From assembly GCF_937873615.1 (NCBI RefSeq), contig NZ_CALMYP010000017.1:186001-250000 (forward strand): 64,000 nt of DNA, read 5' to 3'. The stretch comes from an uncultured Paracoccus sp. GTDB taxonomy: Bacteria; Pseudomonadota; Alphaproteobacteria; Rhodobacterales; Rhodobacteraceae. Positions 27,423 through 38,632 of this stretch are shown here, one piece after another. Within the stretch, counting starts at the first letter, position 1. Every line of letters begins with the position of its first letter. The notes beneath the pieces were generated by a model, which did not search any database, was not told the origin of the DNA, and saw nothing but the letters and a program-made list of their open reading frames with translations. The translations under genes and the position numbers were made by a program.

Positions 27423-27439
27423 CCTGACATGATGTCAGG
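27423..27439 (+). promoter_or_regulatory. Perfect 17-bp palindrome, likely operator of the Met-rich/oxidoreductase cluster
   Basis: CCTGACAT and ATGTCAGG flank a single central G. The site lies in the 316-nt gap between the mrp-type gene and the first cluster gene, with its centre 33 nt upstream of a consensus -10 box. That spacing fits an activator binding near the -35 position. It does not match the FNR or CRP consensus. The rest of the gap is AT-rich (27440-27480) and otherwise holds nothing I recognise. Confidence 0.6.
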
Positions 27440-27567: not shown

Positions 27568-27873
27568 ATGATGATCCGGATTGTCGCCGCATTCGTTCTG
27601 GCCACCGCACCCGTGCTTGCCCAGGAGGTCGAGGCGCCCGCCGAACATACGGGCTTCATCGCCGGCACCGCCCCTTCGGCGCGGCCGCCCGAAGCCCCGG
27701 TCATCACCGAATATACCAAGGATGCAGCCTGGTTCCGGACGGCGCTTCACGGCGTGTCGCAGCCCTATCCCGACAGCCTGCACTTCCTTCAGGACCAGGG
27801 CGCCTGGTGGACGCCCTTCATCCATGCCGGGGCGCATCGCCCCTATGACATTCGCGGCTGGCACAACGACTAG
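27568..27873 (+). CDS. Small exported protein, first gene of the oxidoreductase cluster
   Basis: I do not recognise this 101-residue protein. A signal peptide (MMIRIVAAFVLATAPVLAQ) is followed by a mature part of about 82 residues with no cysteine and no heme motif. It is rich in aromatic and His residues toward the end (WFRTALHG, GAWWTPFIHAGAHRP). Start could be either of two adjacent ATG codons; GAGAGG lies upstream. It is the first gene after the promoter-like region and about 100 nt before the Met-rich protein, so it is probably exported to the same periplasmic compartment. The His/Trp-rich tail might bind metal, which is a guess. Confidence 0.7.
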   Translation: MMIRIVAAFVLATAPVLAQEVEAPAEHTGFIAGTAPSARPPEAPVITEYTKDAAWFRTALHGVSQPYPDSLHFLQDQGAWWTPFIHAGAHRPYDIRGWHND

Positions 27874-27969: not shown

Positions 27970-28821
27970 ATGACCAAGTTTCTGAAAACGACCCTCGCCG
28001 CGTTCCTTTGCACGGGCGCGCTGATGTCGGTCGCCGGTGCTCAGGGCATGTCGGGGATGTCCGGCATGGACGGCATGTCGGGAATGTCCGGCATGGGTGG
28101 CATGTCCGGGATGAGCGGCATGTCTGGAATGGGCGGCATGTCCGGCATGGGCGGCTCGACCGAAGTCGTCTGCGTTCAGTGGACCCATCCGGCCTATGCC
28201 AGCGCCCCCGCCGGGATGAGCGGCATGTCGGGGATGTCCGGCATGGGTGGCATGTCGGGGATGTCCGGCATGGGTGGCATGTCCGGGATGTCCGGCATGG
28301 GCGGCATGTCAGGGATGTCCGGCATGGGCGGCATGTCCGGGATGAGCGGCATGGGCGGCATGTCCGGGATGAGCGGCATGGATGGCATGTCCGGGATGAG
28401 CGGCATGGATGGCATGTCCGGGATGAGCGGCATGGACGGCATGTCGGGGATGTCCGGCATGGACGGTATGTCGGGAATGTCCGGCATGGGTGGCATGTCG
28501 GGAATGTCCGGCATGGGTGGCATGTCCGGGATGTCCGGCATGGGTGGCATGTCCGGGATGAGCGGCATGGGTGGCATGTCGGGGATGTCCGGCATGGGCG
28601 GTATGTCGGGGATGTCCGGCATGGGTGGCATGTCCGGCATGTCCGGCATGGGCGGTGATCAGGCCGGCTGGGTCTGCACCATCTGGAGCAACCCGGGCAT
28701 GGGCGGAATGTCCGGCATGGGTGGCATGTCGGGGATGAGCGGCATGGGTGGCATGTCGGGGATGTCCGGCATGGACGGCATGTCGGGAATGTCCGGCATG
28801 GACGGCATGTCGGGGAACTGA
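27970..28821 (+). CDS. Secreted Met-rich Gly-Met-Ser/Gly/Asp triplet-repeat protein
   Basis: A 283-residue protein unlike any named family I know. A signal peptide (MTKFLKTTLAAFLCTGALMSVAGAQ) precedes three blocks built wholly of Gly-Met-X triplets with X = Ser, Gly or Asp: residues 26-62, 82-229 and 243-283. In the long block the triplets form sixteen nine-residue units of the form MSGMSGM(G/D)G; four consecutive Asp units sit in its middle. By my count the mature chain of 258 residues holds about 74 Met. Two short inserts interrupt the array (63-81 and 230-242). They share VCVQWTHP and VCTIWSNP, so each carries one Cys. AGGAGG 9 nt upstream fixes the ATG. Met-rich motifs in CopA/PcoA-type proteins bind Cu(I), and Met can also be reversibly oxidised; either could be the role here. 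It is periplasmic or extracellular by its signal peptide. Confidence 0.85.
   Translation: MTKFLKTTLAAFLCTGALMSVAGAQGMSGMSGMDGMSGMSGMGGMSGMSGMSGMGGMSGMGGSTEVVCVQWTHPAYASAPAGMSGMSGMSGMGGMSGMSGMGGMSGMSGMGGMSGMSGMGGMSGMSGMGGMSGMSGMDGMSGMSGMDGMSGMSGMDGMSGMSGMDGMSGMSGMGGMSGMSGMGGMSGMSGMGGMSGMSGMGGMSGMSGMGGMSGMSGMGGMSGMSGMGGDQAGWVCTIWSNPGMGGMSGMGGMSGMSGMGGMSGMSGMDGMSGMSGMDGMSGN
28045..28818 (+). repeat. 27-bp tandem (minisatellite) repeat coding for Met-rich nonapeptides
   Basis: The coding array runs in three stretches (28045-28155, 28213-28656, 28696-28818). The basic unit is 9 nt (Gly-Met-X) within a higher-order unit of 27 nt. Units differ by synonymous changes (TCC or TCG or AGC for Ser, GGC or GGT or GGG for Gly) and by GGC/GAT/GAC at the variable position. 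The reading frame stays open throughout, which points to selection on the protein as well as expansion by slippage or unequal crossing-over. Array length may be hard to assemble correctly. Confidence 0.9.
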
Positions 28822-28899: not shown

Positions 28900-30519
28900 A
28901 TGAAGCGGCTTGAATCAGCCTTGGGCTATATCGCCTTTGCCTTGTTCACATCGACAGGGGTGCTCGCACTCTTCGTGATCGTCACCCTCATTGTCAGGGG
29001 ACCGGAGGAACTGCCGGAATTCGTCTCGACCGCTTCCGCCCGCACCACCGGGACCGAGAGCGCCGCCGAAACCGAAGGCGGCCCCGATCTCGGCACGGCG
29101 GCAGCCGCAGCCGCAGCCACCGACGCAGCCCCGACCGAAGCCGCCGCCGCGCCCGCAGCGACGCTGGATCTCGCGGCGGGCGAGAAGGTGTTCAAGAAAT
29201 GCGCCTCTTGCCATACCATCGACAAGGGCGGTGCCAACCGCGTCGGGCCGAACCTCTGGGGCGTGGTCAATCGCAGCACCGCCCATGCCGAGGGGTTCAA
29301 GTATTCCGACGCCATGCTGTCGCATGATGCCGAGACCTGGACGCCCGAACATCTGGACGAATACCTGGCCAAGCCGCGCGACGTGATCGCCGGCACCACG
29401 ATGAGCTTTGCCGGCCTGCCCAAGCCCGAGGACCGCCATAACCTGATCGCCTGGATGGCGGCGCAATCCGACAGCCCGGTCGCGGCCGAGGCCCTGCCCT
29501 TCGCGGTCGCTGCGGCAACCACGACCGAAACGGCGACCGATGCCACGGCCGAGGCCCCCGCTGACACGCCGGCAGACGCGCCAGCCGACACCGCCGAGGC
29601 ACCGGCCACCGATACCGCCGAGGCCAACAGCAGCGAGCCGGCCCAGATCCCCCATACCGACCCGCCGGGTTCGGATGCGGACGATTTCTCGGTCATCGCG
29701 GCGCGGATCGCGGCGCTGACCGCCGACAGCCGCGCGATGGATTACCAGCGGGCGCGCTTCCATCCGATCCATTTCCCGCCGCAGATCGAAACCGCGACCA
29801 ATGGCGAATGCCTGACCTGTCACCAGGAGGTGCTAGACCACCAGGTCCGCGCGGAATCGCCGGCCGGTCTGAAGGCCGATGAGGCGCTGGCATGGTATCA
29901 GACGCTGGACACCTATGTGCCCGAAGCCGGCACCGGCCAGTCGGATTTCCACTGGCGGCACCTCGACAGCCCGCTGGCGCAGAAGGTCATGAACCTGCAA
30001 TGCAACTTCTGCCATCGCGGCAATGACCCACGCGAGGAAAGCCCGGACATGATGCCGCTGCGCGCCGCCTTCAGCGCCGATCCGGCCACGCCAGAATTCA
30101 CCCTGCGCAAGATGGTGAACCCGTCCGAAACCTGCCTGCTCTGCCACGGTGCCATGCCCGACCCGGAGAACATCATGGGCCTCGGCGGTCCCTGGCCCGA
30201 GATCCGCGCCGATATGGAAGACCAGTCGAGCGACGATCCGACGCTGGCCAATGGCTGCCTGTCCTGCCACCAGGAACTGTTCCGCACCAACCGGCACAAC
30301 GTGACCTATCTGAAGGCCGCCGGGATCGAGGATCTCGCGCAAGCCGGATCGGACACCTGTTACGGCTGTCACGGTGGCCGCGCCTGGTATCGCATCAGCT
30401 ATCCCTATCCGCGCCATCCGTGGCCCGGCATGGATCCCGAGGTGCCGGAATGGGCGGCAGAGCGCCCGACCGCCAGCGACCCGCGCTTCCAGCGCACCGA
30501 CAACGCGCCTGCCCAGTAA
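28900..30519 (+). CDS. Membrane-anchored fused hexaheme cytochrome c (class I domain plus pentaheme domain)
   Basis: A 539-residue protein. One N-terminal helix (about residues 9-33) acts as an uncleaved anchor or signal. A class I cytochrome c domain follows, with CASCH at 101-105, GPNLWGVVNR and an M in TTMSFAGLP as likely axial ligand. A long Ala/Thr/Pro/Asp linker (about 200-250) leads to a C-terminal domain with five more CXXCH motifs starting at C304, C368, C412, C453 and C487. The layout suggests electron relay from a bc1-type donor or quinol dehydrogenase, across the periplasm, to the DmsA-like enzyme encoded 10 nt downstream. The pentaheme part is NrfB-sized, but I do not assign it to a named family. 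Confidence 0.85.
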   Translation: MKRLESALGYIAFALFTSTGVLALFVIVTLIVRGPEELPEFVSTASARTTGTESAAETEGGPDLGTAAAAAAATDAAPTEAAAAPAATLDLAAGEKVFKKCASCHTIDKGGANRVGPNLWGVVNRSTAHAEGFKYSDAMLSHDAETWTPEHLDEYLAKPRDVIAGTTMSFAGLPKPEDRHNLIAWMAAQSDSPVAAEALPFAVAAATTTETATDATAEAPADTPADAPADTAEAPATDTAEANSSEPAQIPHTDPPGSDADDFSVIAARIAALTADSRAMDYQRARFHPIHFPPQIETATNGECLTCHQEVLDHQVRAESPAGLKADEALAWYQTLDTYVPEAGTGQSDFHWRHLDSPLAQKVMNLQCNFCHRGNDPREESPDMMPLRAAFSADPATPEFTLRKMVNPSETCLLCHGAMPDPENIMGLGGPWPEIRADMEDQSSDDPTLANGCLSCHQELFRTNRHNVTYLKAAGIEDLAQAGSDTCYGCHGGRAWYRISYPYPRHPWPGMDPEVPEWAAERPTASDPRFQRTDNAPAQ

Positions 30520-30529
30520 GGAGGCCATG

Positions 30530-33088
30530 ATGACCCTGCAGAACCGCATTGCAGACTGGCTTCGCGCCGTCAGCCCGACCCGCCGGCAATTCCTGAAATC
30601 GGCCTCGGCCACGGCGGCCACGACCCTGGTGGTCGGCAGCCTGCCCCGCCGCGCCGGCGCCTTCGCCTATGAGCCCTATCCGACCGATGACGAGCTTGAG
30701 ACCGTCGTCACCTCCTGCGCGCATAACTGCGGCAGCCGGCACATGCTGGTCGCGCATAAGAAGGGCGACGTGATCGTGCGGCTGTCGACCGATAACGGCA
30801 CCTATCAAGGCGATGCCTATGGCACCGATACCGAGGAGAAGCCGCAACTGCGCGCCTGCCTGCGCGGGCGCTCCTATCGCTCGCGGCTCTACAGCCCGGA
30901 ACGGCTGCTTTACCCGATGAAGCGGGTCGGCGCGCGCGGCGAGGGCAAGTTCAAGCGCATCAGCTGGGATCAGGCCCTGACCGAGATCGCCCAGAGGATG
31001 ACCTATCTGAAGACGACCTACGGACCGACAGCACTTCTGGACCAGTCCTATGCCGGTGCCTCCTATGGCGTGCTGCACAAGTCGGACCAGATCGAGGGGC
31101 TTCTGGCCCGTTTCCTCGGCATGTTCGGCTGCCGGACCAACTCCTGGTCGGTGCCGTCCTATCAGGGCACGACATTCTCAAGCCGGATCACCTATGGCAC
31201 CATCGAGGATGGCAACGAGGACGACACCTTCGCCCATTCGAAGCTGATCGTCATGTGGGGCTGGAACCCGGCCTATACCTTCCACGGCGGCAATACCTTC
31301 TACTACATGCGCATGGCCAAGCAGCGCGGCTGCAAATTCGTGCTGATCGATCCGCAATATACCGACAGCGCCGCGGCCTATGACGCCTGGTGGATCCCGA
31401 TCCGCCCGAATACCGATGCCGCGATGATGGCCGGCATGGCCTATCACATCTGGGATCAGGGCTGGCACGATCAGGACTTCATCGACCGCTTCGTGCAGGG
31501 GATGGACCCCGGCACCATGCCCGACTGGGCCAAGGGACAGGAAAGCTTCCGCGATTACATCTTCGGCGTCAGCGACGGCGTCCCGAAAACCCCGGAATGG
31601 GCCGCCGAGATCTGCGGCGTCTCCGCCGAGGATATCAGGAAACTGTCCGAAATGTATGCCACGACCAAGCCCGCCGCGCTGAAGGCAAGCTGGGCGCCGG
31701 GCCGCAACGCTTACGGCGAGCAATATAACCGCATGGCCGCCGCCCTTCAGGCGATGACCGGCAATATCGGCGTGCTCGGCGGCTGTGCCGAGGGCGTCGG
31801 CAAGGCCTGGCACGCGGAAGGCGTGGCCTATCCCTATGACCAGAACGCGAACCTCTGGTGGGCCTCGATCAAGTCGGACCGTTGGGCGCATGTGGTGCTG
31901 AACTATCCCAATGTCACCCGGCAGGAGGCCGGGCTCTGGCCGCGTCAGGACCAGCTCGACGGGGTGATCCCGAATATCCGGGGGATCTTCTGGCAAGGCT
32001 CGGACTGGTTCAACCAGCTGACCAATATCAACAAGGAAATCGCCGCCATCCGCCGGCTCGACAGCTATGGCGAGGGCGAGAGCCTGCTGGTCTGCATGGA
32101 CAGCACCATCACGCCGACCGGCATCTGGGCCGATTACCTGCTGCCCATCGCCACCCATTTCGAGCGTCACGACGTGGCCCTGCCCTGGTACAAGGGACAT
32201 TACTACATCCACCGCCCGGTGGTGATCCAGCCGCTCGGAGAATCGAAGACCGATCTGCAGGTCTTTACCGAGCTTGCCTGGCGGCTGGGTTTCGGGCCGG
32301 GCTATAACCCCAAGGCCACGCGCGATTACTTCAACGACCCCACCGCCGTGGACGAGGCCTATCTTCAGGACTGGTGGCACAAGGTGCAGGATCACCAGGG
32401 CGCCGAGATCGACTGGGAAACCTTCAAGCAGCGCGGCGTCTACAAGTTCATCCTGCCCGAGCCGCATGTCGCCTTCCGCGCCCAGGTCGAACAGGGTGTG
32501 CCCTTCCAGACCGCCAGCGGCAAGATCGAGATCTTCTCGGGCCAGCTGGCCCAGATTACCGACTGGACGCGGACGCAATACGGCTATCCGATCCCGGCGA
32601 TCCCGAAATGGATCGAGCCCTGGGAAAGCCTCAATTCGCCCAAGACCGCGACCCATCCCTTCCACCTGATCAGCCCGCATCCACGCTGGCGGACGCATTC
32701 GATCTTCAACAACATCCCCTGGCTGCGCGAGACCTTCAGCCAGGAGGTGACGATGAACGCCTCGGACGCGAAGCGACTGGGGATCTCGATGGGCGATACG
32801 GTCGAGGTCTTCAACGATCGCGGCAGCTGCATCGTGCCGGTCTATGTGACCGAGCGCTGCATGCCCGGCGTGGCGGTGCTGCATGAGGGCGCCTGGATGG
32901 ATATCGACGGCAATGGCAAGGACCGCTCCGGCAACCCGGATTTCCTGACCCTGGACGAGCCGTCCCCGGCCGGCGCCTTCGCCTATAACACGGTGCTTTG
33001 CGACATTCGCAAGACCAATCTCGACCACCGCCCCGGATGGGACCAGCTCGCCACCGCGCGCAGCCATGTGTTCCGCCGGGATCTTTGA
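30530..33088 (+). CDS. Tat-exported DMSO-reductase-family molybdopterin oxidoreductase (DmsA-like catalytic subunit)
   Basis: An 852-residue enzyme of normal DmsA length with a Tat signal SPTRRQFLK at residues 15-23. Close to DmsA are LRACLRGRS, YPMKRVGARGEGKFKRISW, IDPQYTD and WWIPIRPNTDAA. The Fe-S motif is C63-x3-C67-x3-H71 with C110; DmsA has Cys where His71 stands. By alignment with DmsA, Ser210 in SVPSYQ is the probable molybdenum ligand. The family reduces S-oxides, N-oxides, selenate and related oxyanions; the substrate here is unknown. AAGGAGG at 30518-30524 favours the second of two adjacent ATGs. It is followed by its Fe-S subunit and TorD chaperone, but not by a DmsC anchor. Confidence 0.93.
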   Translation: MTLQNRIADWLRAVSPTRRQFLKSASATAATTLVVGSLPRRAGAFAYEPYPTDDELETVVTSCAHNCGSRHMLVAHKKGDVIVRLSTDNGTYQGDAYGTDTEEKPQLRACLRGRSYRSRLYSPERLLYPMKRVGARGEGKFKRISWDQALTEIAQRMTYLKTTYGPTALLDQSYAGASYGVLHKSDQIEGLLARFLGMFGCRTNSWSVPSYQGTTFSSRITYGTIEDGNEDDTFAHSKLIVMWGWNPAYTFHGGNTFYYMRMAKQRGCKFVLIDPQYTDSAAAYDAWWIPIRPNTDAAMMAGMAYHIWDQGWHDQDFIDRFVQGMDPGTMPDWAKGQESFRDYIFGVSDGVPKTPEWAAEICGVSAEDIRKLSEMYATTKPAALKASWAPGRNAYGEQYNRMAAALQAMTGNIGVLGGCAEGVGKAWHAEGVAYPYDQNANLWWASIKSDRWAHVVLNYPNVTRQEAGLWPRQDQLDGVIPNIRGIFWQGSDWFNQLTNINKEIAAIRRLDSYGEGESLLVCMDSTITPTGIWADYLLPIATHFERHDVALPWYKGHYYIHRPVVIQPLGESKTDLQVFTELAWRLGFGPGYNPKATRDYFNDPTAVDEAYLQDWWHKVQDHQGAEIDWETFKQRGVYKFILPEPHVAFRAQVEQGVPFQTASGKIEIFSGQLAQITDWTRTQYGYPIPAIPKWIEPWESLNSPKTATHPFHLISPHPRWRTHSIFNNIPWLRETFSQEVTMNASDAKRLGISMGDTVEVFNDRGSCIVPVYVTERCMPGVAVLHEGAWMDIDGNGKDRSGNPDFLTLDEPSPAGAFAYNTVLCDIRKTNLDHRPGWDQLATARSHVFRRDL

Positions 33089-33103: not shown

Positions 33104-33772
33104 ATGGCCAACAAGCTGGACAAGGCCCGGATCAAGGAAAACGCCGCCCGCATCAAGCGCGAGGGCTATACGCCGGTCGTGCCCGACCTGCAGATGGGCT
33201 TCATCCACAACAATGTGGACTGCATCGGCTGCCGGGCCTGCGAAATGGCCTGCAAGGACAAGAACGGCCTGTCCGCCGGGCCGCGCTTCCGCCGGGTGCA
33301 GTATATCGAGGGCGGGGTCTTCCCGAATGTCTTCGCCTTCAAGATCAACATGTCCTGCAACCATTGCGCCGAACCGGCCTGCCTTCCGGCCTGCCCGACC
33401 GGCGCGATCTGGAAACGGCAGGATAACGGCGTCGTCGACATCGACTCGACGCTCTGCATCGGTTGCCGCAAATGCGAGGCCGCCTGCCCCTTCGGCGCGC
33501 CGCAATTCGACCCCGAGGACAACCTCGTCAAGAAATGCAACATGTGCATCGACGAGCTGGAGGCCGGGCGCAAACCCTATTGCGTCGCCGCCTGCATGAT
33601 GCGGGTGCTCGATGTCGGCCCCCTGTCCGAGATCGACGCCGGCACCTATGAGACCAAGGCCGTCGGCCCGAACGAGGATCTGGTCCGTCAGGTCCGCAGC
33701 ATGGCCGACCCGGATCTCACCAACCCGTCGATTCGCTTCGTGGCCCATAGCAAGGGCCGGGTCGATGAGTGA
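33104..33772 (+). CDS. DmsB-like four-cluster [4Fe-4S] electron-transfer subunit
   Basis: A 222-residue iron-sulfur protein with sixteen ligand cysteines in four groups: CIGCRACEMAC, CNHCAEPACLPACP, CIGCRKCEAACP and CNMCIDELEAGRKPYC followed by CVAAC-type spacing. This is the standard DmsB/NrfC arrangement. It has no signal of its own and should be exported by hitch-hiking on the Tat-borne catalytic subunit. It would pass electrons from the multiheme cytochrome to the Mo subunit. GGGGAGG precedes the ATG. It starts 16 nt after the catalytic gene and overlaps the chaperone gene by 8 nt. Confidence 0.93.
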   Translation: MANKLDKARIKENAARIKREGYTPVVPDLQMGFIHNNVDCIGCRACEMACKDKNGLSAGPRFRRVQYIEGGVFPNVFAFKINMSCNHCAEPACLPACPTGAIWKRQDNGVVDIDSTLCIGCRKCEAACPFGAPQFDPEDNLVKKCNMCIDELEAGRKPYCVAACMMRVLDVGPLSEIDAGTYETKAVGPNEDLVRQVRSMADPDLTNPSIRFVAHSKGRVDE

Positions 33773-34520
33773 AGCCGCGCCCCTCGCCCCCCTGCCTCCG
33801 GGCGCGGCCGAAATGCTGACGCCCGTGGCCGAGGGCATGGGCCTTCTGATCCGGCTTCTGGACCGGGAAGCCGATGCCGATCTGATCGCCGGGCTGAACT
33901 CCATGGGCGCGGGCGGCTTCTTCGCGGCCCTTCTGCCCGGCGAGACCGGGGCCGAGATCGCCCGCGTCCTCGATGCCACGCTTGCCGAGATCGAGGATCC
34001 CACCGATCCCGACATGCTGGACGAACTGGCCGCCGATTACGCCGATTGCTTCCTGACCCATGGCCGGCGGCTGTCGCCCAACGGTTCGGTCTGGATGACC
34101 GAGGAGCGGCTGGAGCGGCAGGAACCGATGTTCGCGGTGCGCGACTGGTATGCGCATTACGGGCTGGAAACCCCGAACTGGCGCATCCGCTCGGACGATC
34201 ACCTCGTGCATGAACTGCAATTCGTCCAGCACCTGCTGACGCTCGCCACGCCCGAGGCCAGCCATGACGCGGCCCATTTCATGGACCGGCACCTGCTGCC
34301 TTGGGCGCCGGAATTCGGTCGCCAACTGGCCAGCCGCGCCGCCACCCCGCTGATCGCGGTCAGCGGCGCGCTTCTGGACGATTATCTGCGGATGCTGCGC
34401 GAGCTTCTGACCGAAATCACCGGCATAGCCCCCGATATCGCGCCCCTGCCGGGCGACAAGCCCAATCCCAAGGCCCCCGAGCAACAGCTCTATATCCCCG
34501 GAGTCGCCGAAAGCTGGTAG
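33765..34520 (+). CDS. TorD/DmsD-family molybdoenzyme chaperone
   Basis: A 251-residue all-helical cytoplasmic protein of the TorD family. Such chaperones bind the Tat signal of a molybdoenzyme and hold it for cofactor insertion. DELAADYADCFLTHG and the E-P-M-F segment (RQEPMFAVRDWYAHYGL) match the conserved TorD core, and DHLVHELQFVQHLL gives the D-H-x-x-x-E-L motif. It starts inside the end of the dmsB-like gene (8-nt overlap), so its production is coupled to the enzyme. Confidence 0.88.
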   Translation: MSEAAPLAPLPPGAAEMLTPVAEGMGLLIRLLDREADADLIAGLNSMGAGGFFAALLPGETGAEIARVLDATLAEIEDPTDPDMLDELAADYADCFLTHGRRLSPNGSVWMTEERLERQEPMFAVRDWYAHYGLETPNWRIRSDDHLVHELQFVQHLLTLATPEASHDAAHFMDRHLLPWAPEFGRQLASRAATPLIAVSGALLDDYLRMLRELLTEITGIAPDIAPLPGDKPNPKAPEQQLYIPGVAESW

Positions 34521-35503
34521 ATCGCGCCCATCCCCTGCCAGAAATCGACCGCGCGGCCTGTATCCACAGCCTGTCGCCCTTGGCCGGCTGCGCCGATTGC
34601 ATTGCCGCCTGCCCGCATGACGCCCTGTCCTATGAAGCCGGCGGCATCGCGCTCGATGCGGGGGCCTGTTCCGGTTGCGGGGCCTGCGCCGGCATCTGCC
34701 CGGCCCGCGCCATCACACTGGACGCGCCCGAGCCGGTCACGGACGGCCGCCGCCTGATCGCGGTCTGCGCCCGCCATCCCGCCGCACGCGGCCGCCCGGC
34801 GCCGGTCTGCATCAACCGCGCCGGACTGAACGATTTCGCCGCCTGGGCGCTTGCCGGCATCCGCGAAATCGCCATCGCCACCGGCGATTGCGACACCTGC
34901 CCCGAAAGCACCCCGCGCCACCTCGCCAGCATGGCCGGGGATTTCGCCCCCCTCGCCCGCGCCCATGGCCTGCCCGGGATCGAGATCGTCGAGGCCGGCG
35001 CCCCCGACCTGAAGCTCTGGTCGCGCCGGGCCGAGGACGGCCCTGTTCCCGCCCGCCGCGCTTTGCTGCGCGCGATCACCGCGCCCCTGCGCGACGAAAG
35101 CGCCGCCACACCGCCATTGCAAAGCCTGCAAAGCCGCGATTCCGTCTTCGCCTTTGCCCCGGTCATCGACGCCAATGCCTGCAGCGGATGCGATGCCTGC
35201 GTGAACCTCTGTCCCGAGGGCGTTTTGACCCTGATCAACGACAGCGACGGAAAAATGCGCTATGGGACCGCTGCCGCAGCCTGCACGGGCTGCCTGCTCT
35301 GCGAAGATATCTGCGCCGATCACGCGGTCGAGGTTTCTGCCATGCATCCCAATCCGCCCGAGATTGCCCTTGTCGAATTCTCCTGCCGCGCCTGTGGCGT
35401 GAGCGCCCATGTTCCTGCCTCGGGCCGGCGCGCCGCATCCGGTCTCTGCCCGGTCTGCGCGGCGAGCGGGCATCACAAGAAGCTGTTCCAGGTCCTTCCT
35501 TGA
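34514..35503 (+). CDS. Cytoplasmic polyferredoxin with four [4Fe-4S]-type cysteine motifs
   Basis: A protein of about 329 residues without signal peptide. Four cluster motifs are present in two pairs: CADCIAACP and CSGCGACAGICP near the N-terminus, CSGCDACVNLCP and CTGCLLCEDIC near residues 220-265. A C-terminal zinc-ribbon-like pair (CRACG, CPVC) follows. The central part has further cysteines (CDTCPE) and is only weakly reminiscent of MvhD-like proteins. No ATG, GTG or TTG lies between 34302 and the first cysteine in this frame. The CTG at 34514, at the end of torD, is my tentative start; a TTG at 34301 would demand a long overlap. It may feed electrons to cofactor assembly or to a membrane donor. 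Confidence 0.8.
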   Translation: MVDRAHPLPEIDRAACIHSLSPLAGCADCIAACPHDALSYEAGGIALDAGACSGCGACAGICPARAITLDAPEPVTDGRRLIAVCARHPAARGRPAPVCINRAGLNDFAAWALAGIREIAIATGDCDTCPESTPRHLASMAGDFAPLARAHGLPGIEIVEAGAPDLKLWSRRAEDGPVPARRALLRAITAPLRDESAATPPLQSLQSRDSVFAFAPVIDANACSGCDACVNLCPEGVLTLINDSDGKMRYGTAAAACTGCLLCEDICADHAVEVSAMHPNPPEIALVEFSCRACGVSAHVPASGRRAASGLCPVCAASGHHKKLFQVLP

Positions 35504-37302
35504 CGGCTGGAAACGGCTTGATCGCGCGCTTGCAACAGCGCGTCTGGCTGCGCCTGATCCTGCTTCTGGGCGGGACGCTGATTGCCGTCTCGACGGTGCT
35601 TCTGCTGCTGGTCGTGGGCTTCTACACCAACCGCCTTCGGGCCGAGCAGGAACATGCGGCCTCCCAGGTCGGCAGCCTGCTTCATGCGGCGCTGGAAAAC
35701 GCCATGCTGAAGCGCGACATCCCCGGCCTGACCGCCATCGTGACCGGGCTGGGTCAACAGCCCAGCATCGACCGGGTGATGATCCTGAACCCGGCGCGCG
35801 AGATCCGCTTCGCCTCGGACCCGGCATTGATCGGGCAGATCCTGCCGCCCGATGCCGCGCCCGCGCGCGGCAGCAGCCGGTCCGAGGTCGCGGTGCCCAA
35901 TCGCGAAGCCTGCCGGTCCTGCCATGGCGAGGTGACCGAGCACCCGCTGAACGGGACGCTGGTGGTCGATTACGACGATCACGGCCTGTTTCGGCAGGCG
36001 CTGACCGGCGCCCTCGGGCTGGTCCTTCTGGGTGGGCTGGCGACGCTGGCGGCCTCGGTCGCACTTGCCTTCGGGCTGCGCCGGATCGTCGTGCGCCCGG
36101 TGGCCGAACTGGCTCGCGCCGCCGATGCCATGGCTTCGGGCGATCTGTCGGCGCGGGTCGCCCCCCGTGGCCGGGACGAGATCGCCGCTTTGGGCCACAG
36201 CTTCAACCGCATGGCCGGCCATATCGAGACCAGCCAGGCCGAGTTGATCCGGGCCGAGCGGATGTCGCAATCGCTGATCGACGCCATTCCCGACGGCATC
36301 CGCGTGATCGGCCCGGATTTCCGCATCCGCCGCGCCAATGCCGCCTATGCGGCGCAGGTGGGCCTGCCGCTCGATCAGATCGTCGGGCAGTTCTGCCACC
36401 GCTCCAGCCATGGCCGCGACACGCCCTGCCCCTGGACCATGGTCACCTGCCCGGTGGCCGAGATGAAGCAGACCGCCCGCCGCCTGACCTTCCGCGACCA
36501 GCACCGGCGCCCCGATGGCAGCGCCATGGCGGTCGAGGTCTCGGCCGCGCCCATGGACGGGCTGGTGGTCGAGGCGATCCGCGATCTGGACGAACAGGTC
36601 CGCGTCTCGCAGACCGAGCGGCTGTCGGAAATCGGCCTTCTGGCGACGGGCGTGGCCCACGAGATCCACAACCCGCTCAGTTCCATCGCGCTGACGCTGT
36701 CGACGCTGAACCGCGATCTGGCGCAGGACCGGACCGACCGGGCGCTGCAATATCTCGATCTGATCCGCGCCGAGATCGACAAGAGCCTGCAGATCACCGA
36801 CAGCCTGCTGCGCCTCGGCAGCCCGGCCAGCGGAGAGCCGCAACTGATCGACCTCGCCCCCGCCATCGGCGCGGTGACGCGGCTGCTGGATTTTCAGGCC
36901 CAGACCATGCAGGTCCGTATCGAGATCGACATTCCCGCCGATCTGCGCGTGCTCATCGCCGATTCCGACCTGCGCATGGCAGTCACCAATCTGGTGCTGA
37001 ACGCCTTCCACGCCATGCCCGAAGGCGGGCTGCTGACGCTTTCGGCCCGGCGCGCGGGCGAACGGGTCGAGCTTGCGATTACCGATACCGGCCTCGGTAT
37101 CGCGCCGGAAAACCTGCAGAACATCTTCATGCCCTTCTGGTCGCGCCGCGCCGACCGGTCCAGCGGGCGCGGCCTCGGCCTTGCCATCACCCGCGCCATC
37201 GCCGAGCGCGCCCATGCCAGCCTGTCGGTGCAAAGCACGCTTGGCCAAGGCAGCCGCTTCACCCTGTCCTTCCCTGACCCGGACCATGCCCATGTGCCCT
37301 GA
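35500..37302 (+). CDS. Sensor histidine kinase with a c-type heme motif in the periplasmic domain
   Basis: A 600-residue kinase. TM1 (about 17-41) and TM2 (about 166-190) bracket a periplasmic domain carrying C138-R-S-C141-H142, a c-type heme attachment site. A HAMP segment follows, then a PAS domain with a Cys/His cluster (FCHRSSHGRDTPC and TCPV), the phospho-acceptor His387 in GVAHEIHNPLSS, and a HATPase domain ending SSGRGLGLAITRAI. It probably senses redox state or a heme ligand outside the cytoplasm. It starts at a TTG overlapping the ferredoxin stop (TTGA); a second TTG 18 nt downstream is an alternative. It pairs with the next gene. Confidence 0.9.
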   Translation: MTAGNGLIARLQQRVWLRLILLLGGTLIAVSTVLLLLVVGFYTNRLRAEQEHAASQVGSLLHAALENAMLKRDIPGLTAIVTGLGQQPSIDRVMILNPAREIRFASDPALIGQILPPDAAPARGSSRSEVAVPNREACRSCHGEVTEHPLNGTLVVDYDDHGLFRQALTGALGLVLLGGLATLAASVALAFGLRRIVVRPVAELARAADAMASGDLSARVAPRGRDEIAALGHSFNRMAGHIETSQAELIRAERMSQSLIDAIPDGIRVIGPDFRIRRANAAYAAQVGLPLDQIVGQFCHRSSHGRDTPCPWTMVTCPVAEMKQTARRLTFRDQHRRPDGSAMAVEVSAAPMDGLVVEAIRDLDEQVRVSQTERLSEIGLLATGVAHEIHNPLSSIALTLSTLNRDLAQDRTDRALQYLDLIRAEIDKSLQITDSLLRLGSPASGEPQLIDLAPAIGAVTRLLDFQAQTMQVRIEIDIPADLRVLIADSDLRMAVTNLVLNAFHAMPEGGLLTLSARRAGERVELAITDTGLGIAPENLQNIFMPFWSRRADRSSGRGLGLAITRAIAERAHASLSVQSTLGQGSRFTLSFPDPDHAHVP

Positions 37303-38632
37303 CCGCGCCCATACGATCCTGATCGTCGAGGATGACCGCACCCTGAACCGGCTGATCTGCGACCAGCTGGGCGATCTTGGCCATCATGCCGTGGGCGTCG
37401 GCTGCCGCGCCGATGCGCTGGAACAGCTGGGGCATCTGGCGCCGGATCTGGCGCTGCTGGATATGCGCCTGCCCGATTGCGACGGGCTGACCTTCCTGCC
37501 GGAACTGCGCGAATATTGCCCGGTGATCGTGCTGACCGCCTATGGCTCCATCGACCAGGCGGTCGAGGCGGTGAAGCGCGGGGCCAGCGAATACCTGCTG
37601 AAGCCGATCACCGCCGAAGGCCTGCAGATGGCACTGTCCAAAGTGTTCGAGACCGCCGCCCTGCGCCGCGATCTGGCCTTCTGGCAGGCCGAGGCGCAGC
37701 GCCGCAACCGGCCCGAACTGGTCGGCGACAGCCCCGGGATGAAGGAGTTGCGGCGCATGGTCGAACTGCTTTCGGCCTCGGATGCGCCGGTGCTGATCCA
37801 GGGCGAATCCGGCACCGGCAAGGGGGTGGCGGCGGCCGCGATCCACGCGCAGGGGCCGCGCGGCAATGGCCGCATCGTCGCCGTCGAATGCCATGCCGAG
37901 ATGCTGGAATCCGAACTTTTCGGCAAGGTCCGCGACGGCAGGCTGATCGAAGGGCTGATCGCCGCCGCCGGTCCCGGCACGCTGGTTCTGAACGATATCG
38001 ACCAGTTGTCCGGCGCCGTTCAGGGCCGGCTTCTACGCCTGATCGAGCAGCAAAGCTATCGCCCGCATGGCTCGACCGCCGAGATCCATTCCAGCGCTCG
38101 CATCATCGCCACCAGTGCCGCGGACATGGAGGCAGCGGCACTGGCCGGCAGCTTCAGGCCGCAGCTTTATTACCAGTTCTCGGGCTTCACCCTGCACCTG
38201 CCGCCGCTGCGCCAGCGGATCGAGGATCTGCCCGCCCTGGTCGAGTTCCTGCTTGCCGACCGCAGCTTCCAGCGCGGCGTGGCCAAGGAACTGACCCCCG
38301 ACGCGATGGAGGCGATGCGCAGCTATGATTGGCCCGGCAATATCCGAGAGCTTGCCAATGCCGTGGACCGGGGCGTGATGATGTCGGCGGGCGAAACCCG
38401 GATCACCGCCGCGCATCTGGGGCTGGCGCCGCGCACGGCGGGCGATGCCTCTGGCCGCAGCGTGAGCCTGCGTTTCGCAGATACGCCGACACTGGAAGCC
38501 CTGCGCGACGCCTATATCCAACTGCTTCTGGACCGCTTCGAGGGCAATCGCCAACGCACGGCAGCGGCGCTAGGCATCTCGGAGCGTAACCTCTACCGAT
38601 TGTTGAAATCCGGGGGCGAGGACAGTTCCTGA
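37286..38632 (+). CDS. NtrC-like response regulator with degenerate AAA+ domain
   Basis: A 448-residue regulator. The receiver domain has D16/D17, phospho-acceptor Asp59 in LLDMRLPD, and Lys106. The AAA+ domain has Walker A GESGTGKG (173-180), but the Walker B reads LVLNDI where NtrC proteins have LFLDEI, and the GAFTGA loop that contacts sigma-54 is missing: ELFGK runs straight into a short linker. The C-terminus has a Fis-type helix-turn-helix (RTAAALGISERNLYRLL). It therefore probably works with sigma-70, as Rhodobacter capsulatus NtrC does. It overlaps the kinase gene by 17 nt. Likely targets are the palindromes upstream of the cluster or of the next gene. Confidence 0.9.
   Translation: MPMCPDRAHTILIVEDDRTLNRLICDQLGDLGHHAVGVGCRADALEQLGHLAPDLALLDMRLPDCDGLTFLPELREYCPVIVLTAYGSIDQAVEAVKRGASEYLLKPITAEGLQMALSKVFETAALRRDLAFWQAEAQRRNRPELVGDSPGMKELRRMVELLSASDAPVLIQGESGTGKGVAAAAIHAQGPRGNGRIVAVECHAEMLESELFGKVRDGRLIEGLIAAAGPGTLVLNDIDQLSGAVQGRLLRLIEQQSYRPHGSTAEIHSSARIIATSAADMEAAALAGSFRPQLYYQFSGFTLHLPPLRQRIEDLPALVEFLLADRSFQRGVAKELTPDAMEAMRSYDWPGNIRELANAVDRGVMMSAGETRITAAHLGLAPRTAGDASGRSVSLRFADTPTLEALRDAYIQLLLDRFEGNRQRTAAALGISERNLYRLLKSGGEDSS

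What the first reader, a model, noticed from the sequence alone, without database searches (positions are those of the whole stretch)
27970..28821. A secreted protein made almost entirely of Gly-Met-X triplets
After a clear signal peptide, the mature chain is three blocks of Gly-Met-(Ser/Gly/Asp) triplets, with about 74 Met in 258 residues by my count. I know of no characterised family with this composition. Met-rich motifs in CopA/PcoA bind Cu(I); surface Met can also act as a reversible oxidant sink. Lying first in an operon with a DMSO-reductase-family enzyme, the protein could be a periplasmic copper store, an oxidant sink, or even a protein substrate whose methionine sulfoxides are reduced by the neighbouring enzyme. 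The last idea is speculation.
Basis: partly seen in the sequence, partly recalled or inferred. Interest (0 to 1): 0.93.

Follow-up and report, generated by a model that had tools for sequence, protein, structure and literature searches.

The report
Rechargeable methionine sponge beside molybdenum enzyme
A bacterial protein predicted to be exported and built almost entirely of Gly-Met-X repeats is encoded beside one distinct DmsA-like molybdenum enzyme across many proteobacteria, and it likely soaks up oxidants on its dozens of methionines so that the enzyme would turn them back, a recycling system that has not been tested at the bench.

Summary
In detail: window 27970-28821 encodes a 283-aa protein with a likely signal peptide and 74 Gly-Met-X triplets. 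In three overlapping samples of whole genomes (101, 385, 398), long Gly-Met-X arrays occur in exactly the genomes that carry one discrete clade of DmsA-like enzymes (5, 3, 5; 9 distinct). Of 86 distinct loci of the clade, 74 show the gene; with at least 2 kb of upstream sequence it is 49 of 50, and the exception's genome has it at a second locus. None of 18 loci of the next-nearest enzymes has it. In 3615 array triplets Met gives way to Ile or Leu only 4 times and never to Val, while the third residue varies freely, which points to thioether chemistry. No copper gene turned up among the neighbours scanned. Best reading (0.5): a periplasmic methionine sink, oxidised to sulfoxide and recycled by the adjacent Mo/Fe-S enzyme through a multihaem cytochrome. 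It would work like MrpX-YedYZ, with an unrelated repeat and enzyme. The sulfoxide chemistry is inferred; nothing here shows it.

The parts
27568..27873 (+). sp101: 101-aa protein with a likely signal peptide (by eye), no Pfam or NCBIfam hit; first gene of the block here
   Evidence: no hit at E 0.01; homologue in 43 of 44 distinct loci with at least 3 kb upstream of MoA, not in L071; in a few loci (L158, L096, L112) it lies between GMX gene and enzyme; G33, G62, W80, Y93, R96 invariant in 48 rows
27970..28821 (+). Gly-Met-X repeat protein (GMX), 283 aa with likely Sec signal peptide
28045..28155 (+). first GMX array
   Evidence: sequence; boundaries approximate
28156..28212 (+). first insert, STEVVCVQWTHPAYASAPA, predicted strand at residues 65-71
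28213..28653 (+). central GMX array
   Evidence: boundaries approximate
28654..28695 (+). second insert, GDQAGWVCTIWSNP, predicted strand at residues 233-239
28696..28818 (+). third GMX array
   Evidence: boundaries approximate
28900..30519 (+). c-type cytochrome with an N-terminal hydrophobic stretch (by eye): class I cytochrome c domain (residues about 65-189) fused to a region with five further CXXCH motifs
   Evidence: Pfam PF00034, PF14522, PF22113; best PDB matches 3m97 (cytochrome c-552) and 9fks; 5 or 6 CXXCH in 85 of 86 homologue rows, a few rows duplicate
30527..33088 (+). MoA: DmsA-like molybdopterin oxidoreductase, 853 aa, twin-Arg leader
   Evidence: PF00384, PF01568 over cut-off, TAT_signal 21.2 bits just under its 22.7; TIGR02166 604 bits, below its cut-off of 777.7; R19-R20 in 88 of 88 rows
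33104..33772 (+). DmsB-like 4Fe-4S subunit
   Evidence: PF13247; TIGR02951 189 bits, below its cut-off of 214.1
33762..34520 (+). TorD-family chaperone
   Evidence: PF02613
34586..35503 (+). polyferredoxin (start approximate)
   Evidence: PF00037, PF12838
35500..37302 (+). sensor histidine kinase with a CXXCH motif at residue 138, ahead of its HAMP domain (start approximate)
   Evidence: PF00672 at 193-243, PF00512, PF02518; motif position; a CXXCH motif in 55 of 55 homologue rows
37298..38632 (+). NtrC-type response regulator lacking the GAFTGA loop
   Evidence: PF00158, PF00072

Best explanation
This protein of 74 Gly-Met-X triplets, predicted to be exported, is the constant genomic partner of one clade of DmsA-like molybdenum enzymes and likely acts as a periplasmic methionine sink, whose side chains would be oxidised to methionine sulfoxide and then reduced back by that enzyme. 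Shown here: the repeat, the co-occurrence with the enzyme clade, the conserved gene block, and the near absence of Ile, Leu and Val at the Met position. Predicted from homology: Sec export of the repeat protein, Tat export of the Mo/4Fe-4S pair, electron supply through the multihaem cytochrome, and control by a kinase with a haem-c motif. Inferred and untested: that the Met are oxidised in the cell, by which oxidant, and that this Mo enzyme reduces protein-bound methionine sulfoxide. The chain is predicted to be unfolded, with each Met after a Gly and mostly before a small or polar residue, which would expose the sulfurs to solvent and to an active site.
For: Phylogenetic profile: long GMX arrays and MoA in the same 5 of 101 genomes of the genus, the same 3 of 385 of the class, the same 5 of 398 of the phylum; 9 distinct positive genomes. 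The 20 further phylum genomes with a more distant relative of MoA (450 bits or less) have no ten-triplet array. Synteny: GMX gene in 74 of 86 distinct loci; 73 of 79 with at least 1 kb upstream, 53 of 54 with 1.7 kb, 49 of 50 with 2 kb; the exception's genome carries sp101 and GMX at a second locus. The block also sits on a conjugative Rhodobacter xanthinilyticus plasmid. Control: 0 of 18 loci of the next-nearest enzymes have a GMX array within about 8 kb. Thioether requirement: position 2 of 3615 array triplets is Met in 3361, Ile 3, Leu 1, Val 0, while position 3 takes 17 residue types. Ser211, the Mo-ligand position (recalled), is Ser in 88 of 88 clade rows and 19 of 19 controls, as expected of an S-/N-oxide reductase. 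Precedents: MrpX-YedYZ, MXKDX protein with MsrQP, DorA reducing MetO in proteins and preferring the peptide QWGAGM(O)QAEED, a Gly-Met context.
Against: No oxidation, reduction or binding was measured. The enzyme's substrate is unknown and it falls below the DmsA/YnfE cut-off. Within the wider family BisC and TorZ/MtsZ do not reduce MetO in proteins (PMC7402097 passage), and the authors on Haemophilus influenzae DmsABC conclude that methionine sulfoxide is probably not its main substrate (PMC8340005 passages). The genus already has MsrP: over the cut-off in 78 of 101 genomes and in 4 of the 5 GMX genomes, so general repair does not need this system. I saw no oxidant-producing enzyme in the block. 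Short GMX tracts also hang on NapC-like, CcoP, cytochrome c, DsrE, OmpA and IalB proteins, whose neighbours I did not see. The invariant His72 at an Fe-S ligand position is unexplained.
Confidence: 0.5

Rival explanations
1. Scaffold or condensate former: the low-complexity Gly-Met chain, broken by short strand-like inserts, would gather the Mo enzyme and cytochromes in the periplasm, possibly in a redox-dependent way as the Met-rich domain of yeast ataxin-2 (Pbp1) does.
For: Arrays are predicted disordered (mean pLDDT 44); aromatic inserts recur in most alphaproteobacterial and gammaproteobacterial forms but differ between them; GMX tracts occur as tails on several cytochromes; Pbp1 precedent (PMC8394241 passages).
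Against: A purely cohesive role should tolerate Leu, Ile or Val at the Met position, yet only 4 of 3615 triplets have them.
Confidence: 0.15
2. Soft-metal ligand: the MxxM spacing would bind Cu(I) or Ag(I) as a periplasmic store or buffer.
For: Met every third residue resembles MxxM copper motifs (recalled); Met is kept.
Against: No copper gene among the nine block genes or the three most frequent neighbour clusters (rarer clusters were not scanned); constant partnership with a Mo enzyme; His is rare and most gammaproteobacterial forms have no Cys.
Confidence: 0.12
3. Product binder: the Mo enzyme would reduce a metalloid or chalcogen oxyanion and the GMX protein would coat the insoluble product, as SefA is reported to do for selenium (recalled; one search gave a listing only).
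For: Nearest curated subfamily is named DMSO/selenate reductase; thioethers bind soft elements (established chemistry).
Against: I saw no metalloid gene in the block; carriers include animal symbionts, Thiothrix, Rhodovulum and Paracoccus (titles), not an obvious metalloid niche.
Confidence: 0.12
4. Collagen-like surface protein: the Gly-X-X periodicity forms a triple helix used in adhesion.
For: Pfam Collagen 64.4 bits, over its cut-off of 27.2.
Against: No Pro in any of the 74 triplets; curated collagen-like adhesin models score far under cut-off; constant redox-enzyme neighbourhood. One relative (G244) does have Pro at some X positions.
Confidence: 0.02

Closest known systems
MrpX with YedYZ (MsrPQ), Azospira suillum; BcrXQP is a relative
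   Same: Exported methionine-rich repeat protein encoded beside a periplasmic molybdenum enzyme; MrpX is oxidised by hypochlorite and re-reduced (PMC5748585, PMC8315932 passages).
   Different: Repeat is Gly-Met-X, not MXKDX; enzyme is DMSO-reductase family with a 4Fe-4S subunit, not MsrP; electron path is likely a multihaem c cytochrome; a two-component system, not an ECF sigma/anti-sigma pair, lies in the block.
DmsABC / YnfEFGH DMSO and selenate reductases
   Same: Homologous catalytic and Fe-S subunits and TorD-type chaperone; Ser at the Mo-ligand position.
   Different: Catalytic subunit 29-35% identical to those of the control loci; clade members score 1624 bits or more on the clade model, the next relatives 450 or less; below curated cut-offs; no membrane anchor DmsC among the block genes; His instead of the third N-terminal Cys; GMX partner.
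DorA DMSO reductase, Rhodobacter sphaeroides
   Same: Periplasmic DMSO-reductase family enzyme shown to reduce protein-bound methionine sulfoxide (PMC7402097).
   Different: Monomeric; no dedicated Met-rich substrate protein in the parts I read.
Pbp1 (yeast ataxin-2) Met-rich domain
   Same: Met-rich low-complexity chain whose reversible Met oxidation has a function (PMC8394241 passages).
   Different: Eukaryotic and cytosolic, reset by Msr enzymes; no Gly-Met-X periodicity that I know of (recalled).

Membership tests
MrpX / MXKDX-repeat system | MXKDX pentapeptide repeat | tested here: not met
   Repeat is GMX; NCBIfam scan at E 0.01 lists only three collagen-like adhesin models
MrpX / MXKDX-repeat system | Adjacent MsrP (YedY) enzyme with MsrQ | tested here: not met
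   Neighbouring enzyme is PF00384/PF01568; MsrP is on another contig, C45
MrpX / MXKDX-repeat system | Exported Met-rich protein encoded with a periplasmic Mo enzyme | tested here: met
   (export of both is predicted)
MrpX / MXKDX-repeat system | Sacrificial Met oxidation and enzymatic re-reduction | not testable with these tools
   needs mass spectrometry and enzyme assay
DmsABC/YnfEFGH | DmsA/YnfE subfamily score (TIGR02166 cut-off 777.7) | tested here: not met
   604 bits; three of the 19 control enzymes scanned score 1124, 1361 and 1380
DmsABC/YnfEFGH | N-terminal CX3CX3C...C cluster ligands | tested here: not met
   C64, C68, H72, C111 in 88 of 88 rows (two rows duplicate); Cys at position 72 in 19 of 19 controls
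DmsABC/YnfEFGH | DmsC membrane anchor | tested here: not met
   none among the nine block genes scanned
DMSO reductase superfamily | Molybdopterin oxidoreductase and dinucleotide-binding domains, Ser at Mo-ligand position | tested here: met
   (ligand identity by alignment and recall)
Collagen-like proteins | Pfam Collagen over gathering score | tested here: met
   64.4 bits against 27.2
Collagen-like proteins | Pro-rich X positions stabilising a triple helix | tested here: not met
   X = Ser, Gly, Asp only
Copper store or resistance protein | Genetic link to copper genes | tested here: not met
   nine block genes and three neighbour clusters scanned; rarer neighbours not scanned
Copper store or resistance protein | Cu(I) binding | not testable with these tools
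   needs purified protein

The most novel reading that the evidence does not exclude
A protein-bound respiratory battery: the GMX protein is charged to a poly-sulfoxide in air and discharged in anoxia as an electron acceptor inside the cell's own periplasm, taking up to about 150 electrons per chain through the multihaem cytochrome and the Mo enzyme, under control of a haem-c sensor kinase.
Probability: 0.12. Interest if true: 0.93.

Novelty: new variant of a known kind. Interest (0 to 1): 0.77.

Why it matters
If right, oxidant sinks made of methionine and reset by a molybdenum enzyme arose at least twice, with unrelated repeats and unrelated enzymes, and a widespread clade of DMSO-reductase-like enzymes (in animal symbionts, Thiothrix, Rhodobacterales and others) has a protein, not DMSO, as its natural substrate. 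The question is directly testable because the proposed substrate and enzyme are encoded in one block. Even if the chemistry is wrong, the profile identifies a constant partner of a molybdoenzyme clade, described in none of the papers that my searches listed (titles and abstract starts).

Tried and rejected
A homology search with the repeat itself returned 110 proteins (only the 7994 candidates sharing most words were scored). Of the about 30 sequences I read, most are unrelated proteins with short GMX tracts; P0002 (OmpA fusion) shares both Cys segments. Copper linkage was looked for and not found. The Cys segments as an essential motif were rejected: the Trp-x-Cys-Thr-Gln motif is mostly alphaproteobacterial (related Cys forms in L050, L102, L108), most other gammaproteobacterial forms use YFKITPQGQIFFYPAS without Cys, and several forms, mostly betaproteobacterial, have neither. 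Ser/Gly/Asp at X as essential was rejected: G244 has Tyr, Pro, Arg, Trp. A sigma-54 promoter was sought with a recalled consensus; no match at up to two mismatches lies upstream of the block. Replacement of MsrP by this system was tested and not supported. Structure prediction of the GMX protein gave disorder and of sp101 a low-confidence model, so no fold search was run. Literature: the string GMSGMSGM is in 0 held papers; searches listed nothing whose title or abstract start describes this gene pair; only the open-licence library was searched. Melnyk 2015, the primary MrpX paper, is not held, so I rely on later papers.

Full report
What is there. Window 27970-28821 (+) encodes a 283-residue protein. 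After a Sec-type signal peptide, judged by eye, 258 residues hold 74 Met and 96 Gly in 74 Gly-Met-X triplets, X being 49 Ser, 18 Gly and 7 Asp. Two short segments, with Cys68 and Cys236, part the arrays. At the DNA level the arrays are not a fresh expansion: Gly third positions are mixed, 17 of 22 27-base units are distinct, and no Met codon deviates.

The block. Upstream lies sp101 (27568-27873), a 101-aa secreted-looking protein without a family. Downstream come a c-type cytochrome with six CXXCH motifs, a DmsA-like molybdenum enzyme with a twin-Arg leader (MoA), a DmsB-like 4Fe-4S protein, a TorD chaperone, a polyferredoxin, a histidine kinase and an NtrC-type regulator. The first domain of the cytochrome best matches cytochrome c-552 structures, which I recall as the membrane-bound kind of Paracoccus. 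Of 86 homologue rows, 66 have five motifs, 19 six and 1 four. All 55 kinase homologue rows have a CXXCH motif (53 distinct).

Does the repeat protein always go with this enzyme? Three samples of whole genomes were searched for both. Genus, 101 genomes: MoA in 5; five-triplet DNA matches in 6, namely the same 5 with 45 to 79 matches each and one other genome with a single match. Class, 385 genomes: MoA at E 1e-140 in 3; matches in 32, namely those 3 with 47, 62 and 84 and 29 others with at most 6. The second place found in the window's own genome lies at the C-terminal end of a GroEL-like gene (name by recall). Phylum, 398 genomes: 25 have some relative at E 1e-80, but only 5 are of the clade (1624 bits or more; the next is 450), and ten-triplet arrays occur in exactly those 5 and in none of the other 20. 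The samples overlap; the positives are 9 distinct genomes. Such a coincidence by random placement would have a probability of about 1e-7 or less in each sample, though genomes are not independent. The exact DNA pattern would miss forms whose arrays are often interrupted.

Synteny. The GMX gene was seen in 74 of 86. By length of upstream sequence: 73 of 79 at 1 kb or more, 53 of 54 at 1.7 kb, 49 of 50 at 2 kb, 37 of 38 at 6 kb. Eleven of the 12 without it have 1698 bp or less upstream, so the 1.7 kb line is a choice made after seeing the data. Many contigs end inside the array, as repeats make assemblies break. The remaining one, L085 (Ca. Sedimenticola endophacoides), goes straight from sp101 to the cytochrome, but its genome has a second kinase-regulator-sp101-GMX locus at a contig end. 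A further copy of the whole block, sp101 included (46% identical), is on the conjugative plasmid pEJ01 of Rhodobacter xanthinilyticus, where the GMX gene is annotated as hypothetical. As a control, 18 loci that hold 19 of the 30 more distant places have no GMX array within about 8 kb (3 kb on one side at L207); three of these enzymes were checked and belong to the DmsA/YnfE subfamily. The 266 more distant relatives were not examined.

What is conserved in the protein. Inserts differ by lineage: Trp-x-Cys-Thr-Gln-Trp/Tyr in most Alphaproteobacteria, YFKITPQGQIFFYPAS and QWVWVPS in most Gammaproteobacteria, only Gln-Lys or Gln-Gln breaks in most betaproteobacterial and some other forms (lineage from record titles). 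In G244 the third residue has drifted to Tyr, Pro, Arg and Trp and the gene is doubled. I took runs of five or more Gly-x-x triplets with Met in at least half: of 3615 triplets from 74 loci or genes the second position is Met in 3361 and Ile in 3, Leu in 1, Val in 0; the commonest other residue is Gln (115), from breaks; the third position takes 17 kinds. This points to selection for the thioether rather than for hydrophobicity. AlphaFold2 leaves the arrays disordered (mean pLDDT 44) and makes strands only of the two Cys segments, residues 65-71 and 233-239.

The enzyme. MoA is a discrete clade: 29-35% identical to the enzymes of the control loci; it and its Fe-S partner fall below the curated Dms cut-offs. 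In 88 aligned rows (two duplicate) C64, C68, H72 and C111 are invariant; 19 of 19 control rows have Cys at position 72. Ser211, which aligns with the molybdenum ligand of DMSO reductases (recalled), is invariant in both sets. The Ser ligand suits an oxygen-atom transfer from S- or N-oxides.

How it likely works. Inferred: the exported, unfolded chain presents dozens of exposed methionines; oxidants turn them into sulfoxides in place of other envelope proteins; MoA-DmsB, fed by the cytochrome, reduces them. Two facts from print make this credible: MrpX and YedYZ form such a methionine cycle (PMC5748585, PMC4623255, PMC8315932, passages), and DorA, a DMSO reductase, reduces methionine sulfoxide in proteins, about three-fold faster on QWGAGM(O)QAEED than on TTPGYM(O)EEWNK (PMC7402097, abstract and section 3.3). 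The same paper notes that BisC and TorZ/MtsZ do not act on proteins, and that DmsA takes the R and DorA the S sulfoxide, so activity of MoA cannot be assumed.

Results that weigh against it. MsrP, the usual periplasmic repair enzyme, is over the cut-off in 78 of 101 genomes of the genus and in 4 of the 5 GMX genomes, so the block is an addition and not a replacement. Work on Haemophilus influenzae concluded that its DmsABC probably does not have methionine sulfoxide as main substrate (PMC8340005, passages). I saw no oxidant source in the block. GMX tracts occur on NapC-like, CcoP, cytochrome c, DsrE, OmpA and IalB proteins from other sources. Neither oxidation nor enzyme activity was measured.

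Verdict. The protein is real, striking and, in what I could test, a constant partner of one molybdoenzyme clade. As a kind of system it is most like MrpX-YedYZ, but it fails defining features of that family and of DmsABC, so it is best called a new variant of a known kind. I give the methionine-sink reading 0.5.

Noticed in passing
window 27568-27873 and homologues: sp101, an unnamed small secreted-looking protein, is almost as constant in the block as the GMX gene (43 of 44 distinct loci with 3 kb or more upstream) and has no known function.
   Followed up: partly
window 30527-33088, residue 72: An invariant His replaces the third Cys of the N-terminal Fe-S motif in all 88 clade rows, which may shift the cluster's potential.
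   Followed up: partly
window 35500-37302: The sensor kinase has a CXXCHG motif ahead of HAMP; all 55 homologue rows have a CXXCH motif, suggesting a haem-c sensor.
   Followed up: partly
window 37298-38632: The NtrC-type regulator lacks the GAFTGA loop; 9 of 11 ORFs caught in related loci by a simple motif filter have GAFTG.
   Followed up: partly
window 27423-27439: Inverted repeat CCTGACA-TGA-TGTCAGG followed by a T-rich stretch in the gap upstream of sp101; terminator-like or an operator.
   Followed up: no
P0005, P0016, P0033, P0088, P0027, P0006, P0036, P0013: GMX tails or heads on NapC/NrfH-like cytochromes, a CcoP, DsrE/F-like proteins and an IalB protein: a reusable module.
   Followed up: partly
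P0002: GMX array with both Cys segments fused to an OmpA domain, which would anchor it to the cell wall.
   Followed up: partly
G044: Carries a second GMX array on the other strand (21 forward matches beside 56 reverse); not located.
   Followed up: no
L078, L110 and relatives: A thioredoxin-NHL protein cluster is found in 17 of the fetched loci and a monohaem cytochrome c cluster in 12; those listed are mostly symbiont Gammaproteobacteria.
   Followed up: partly
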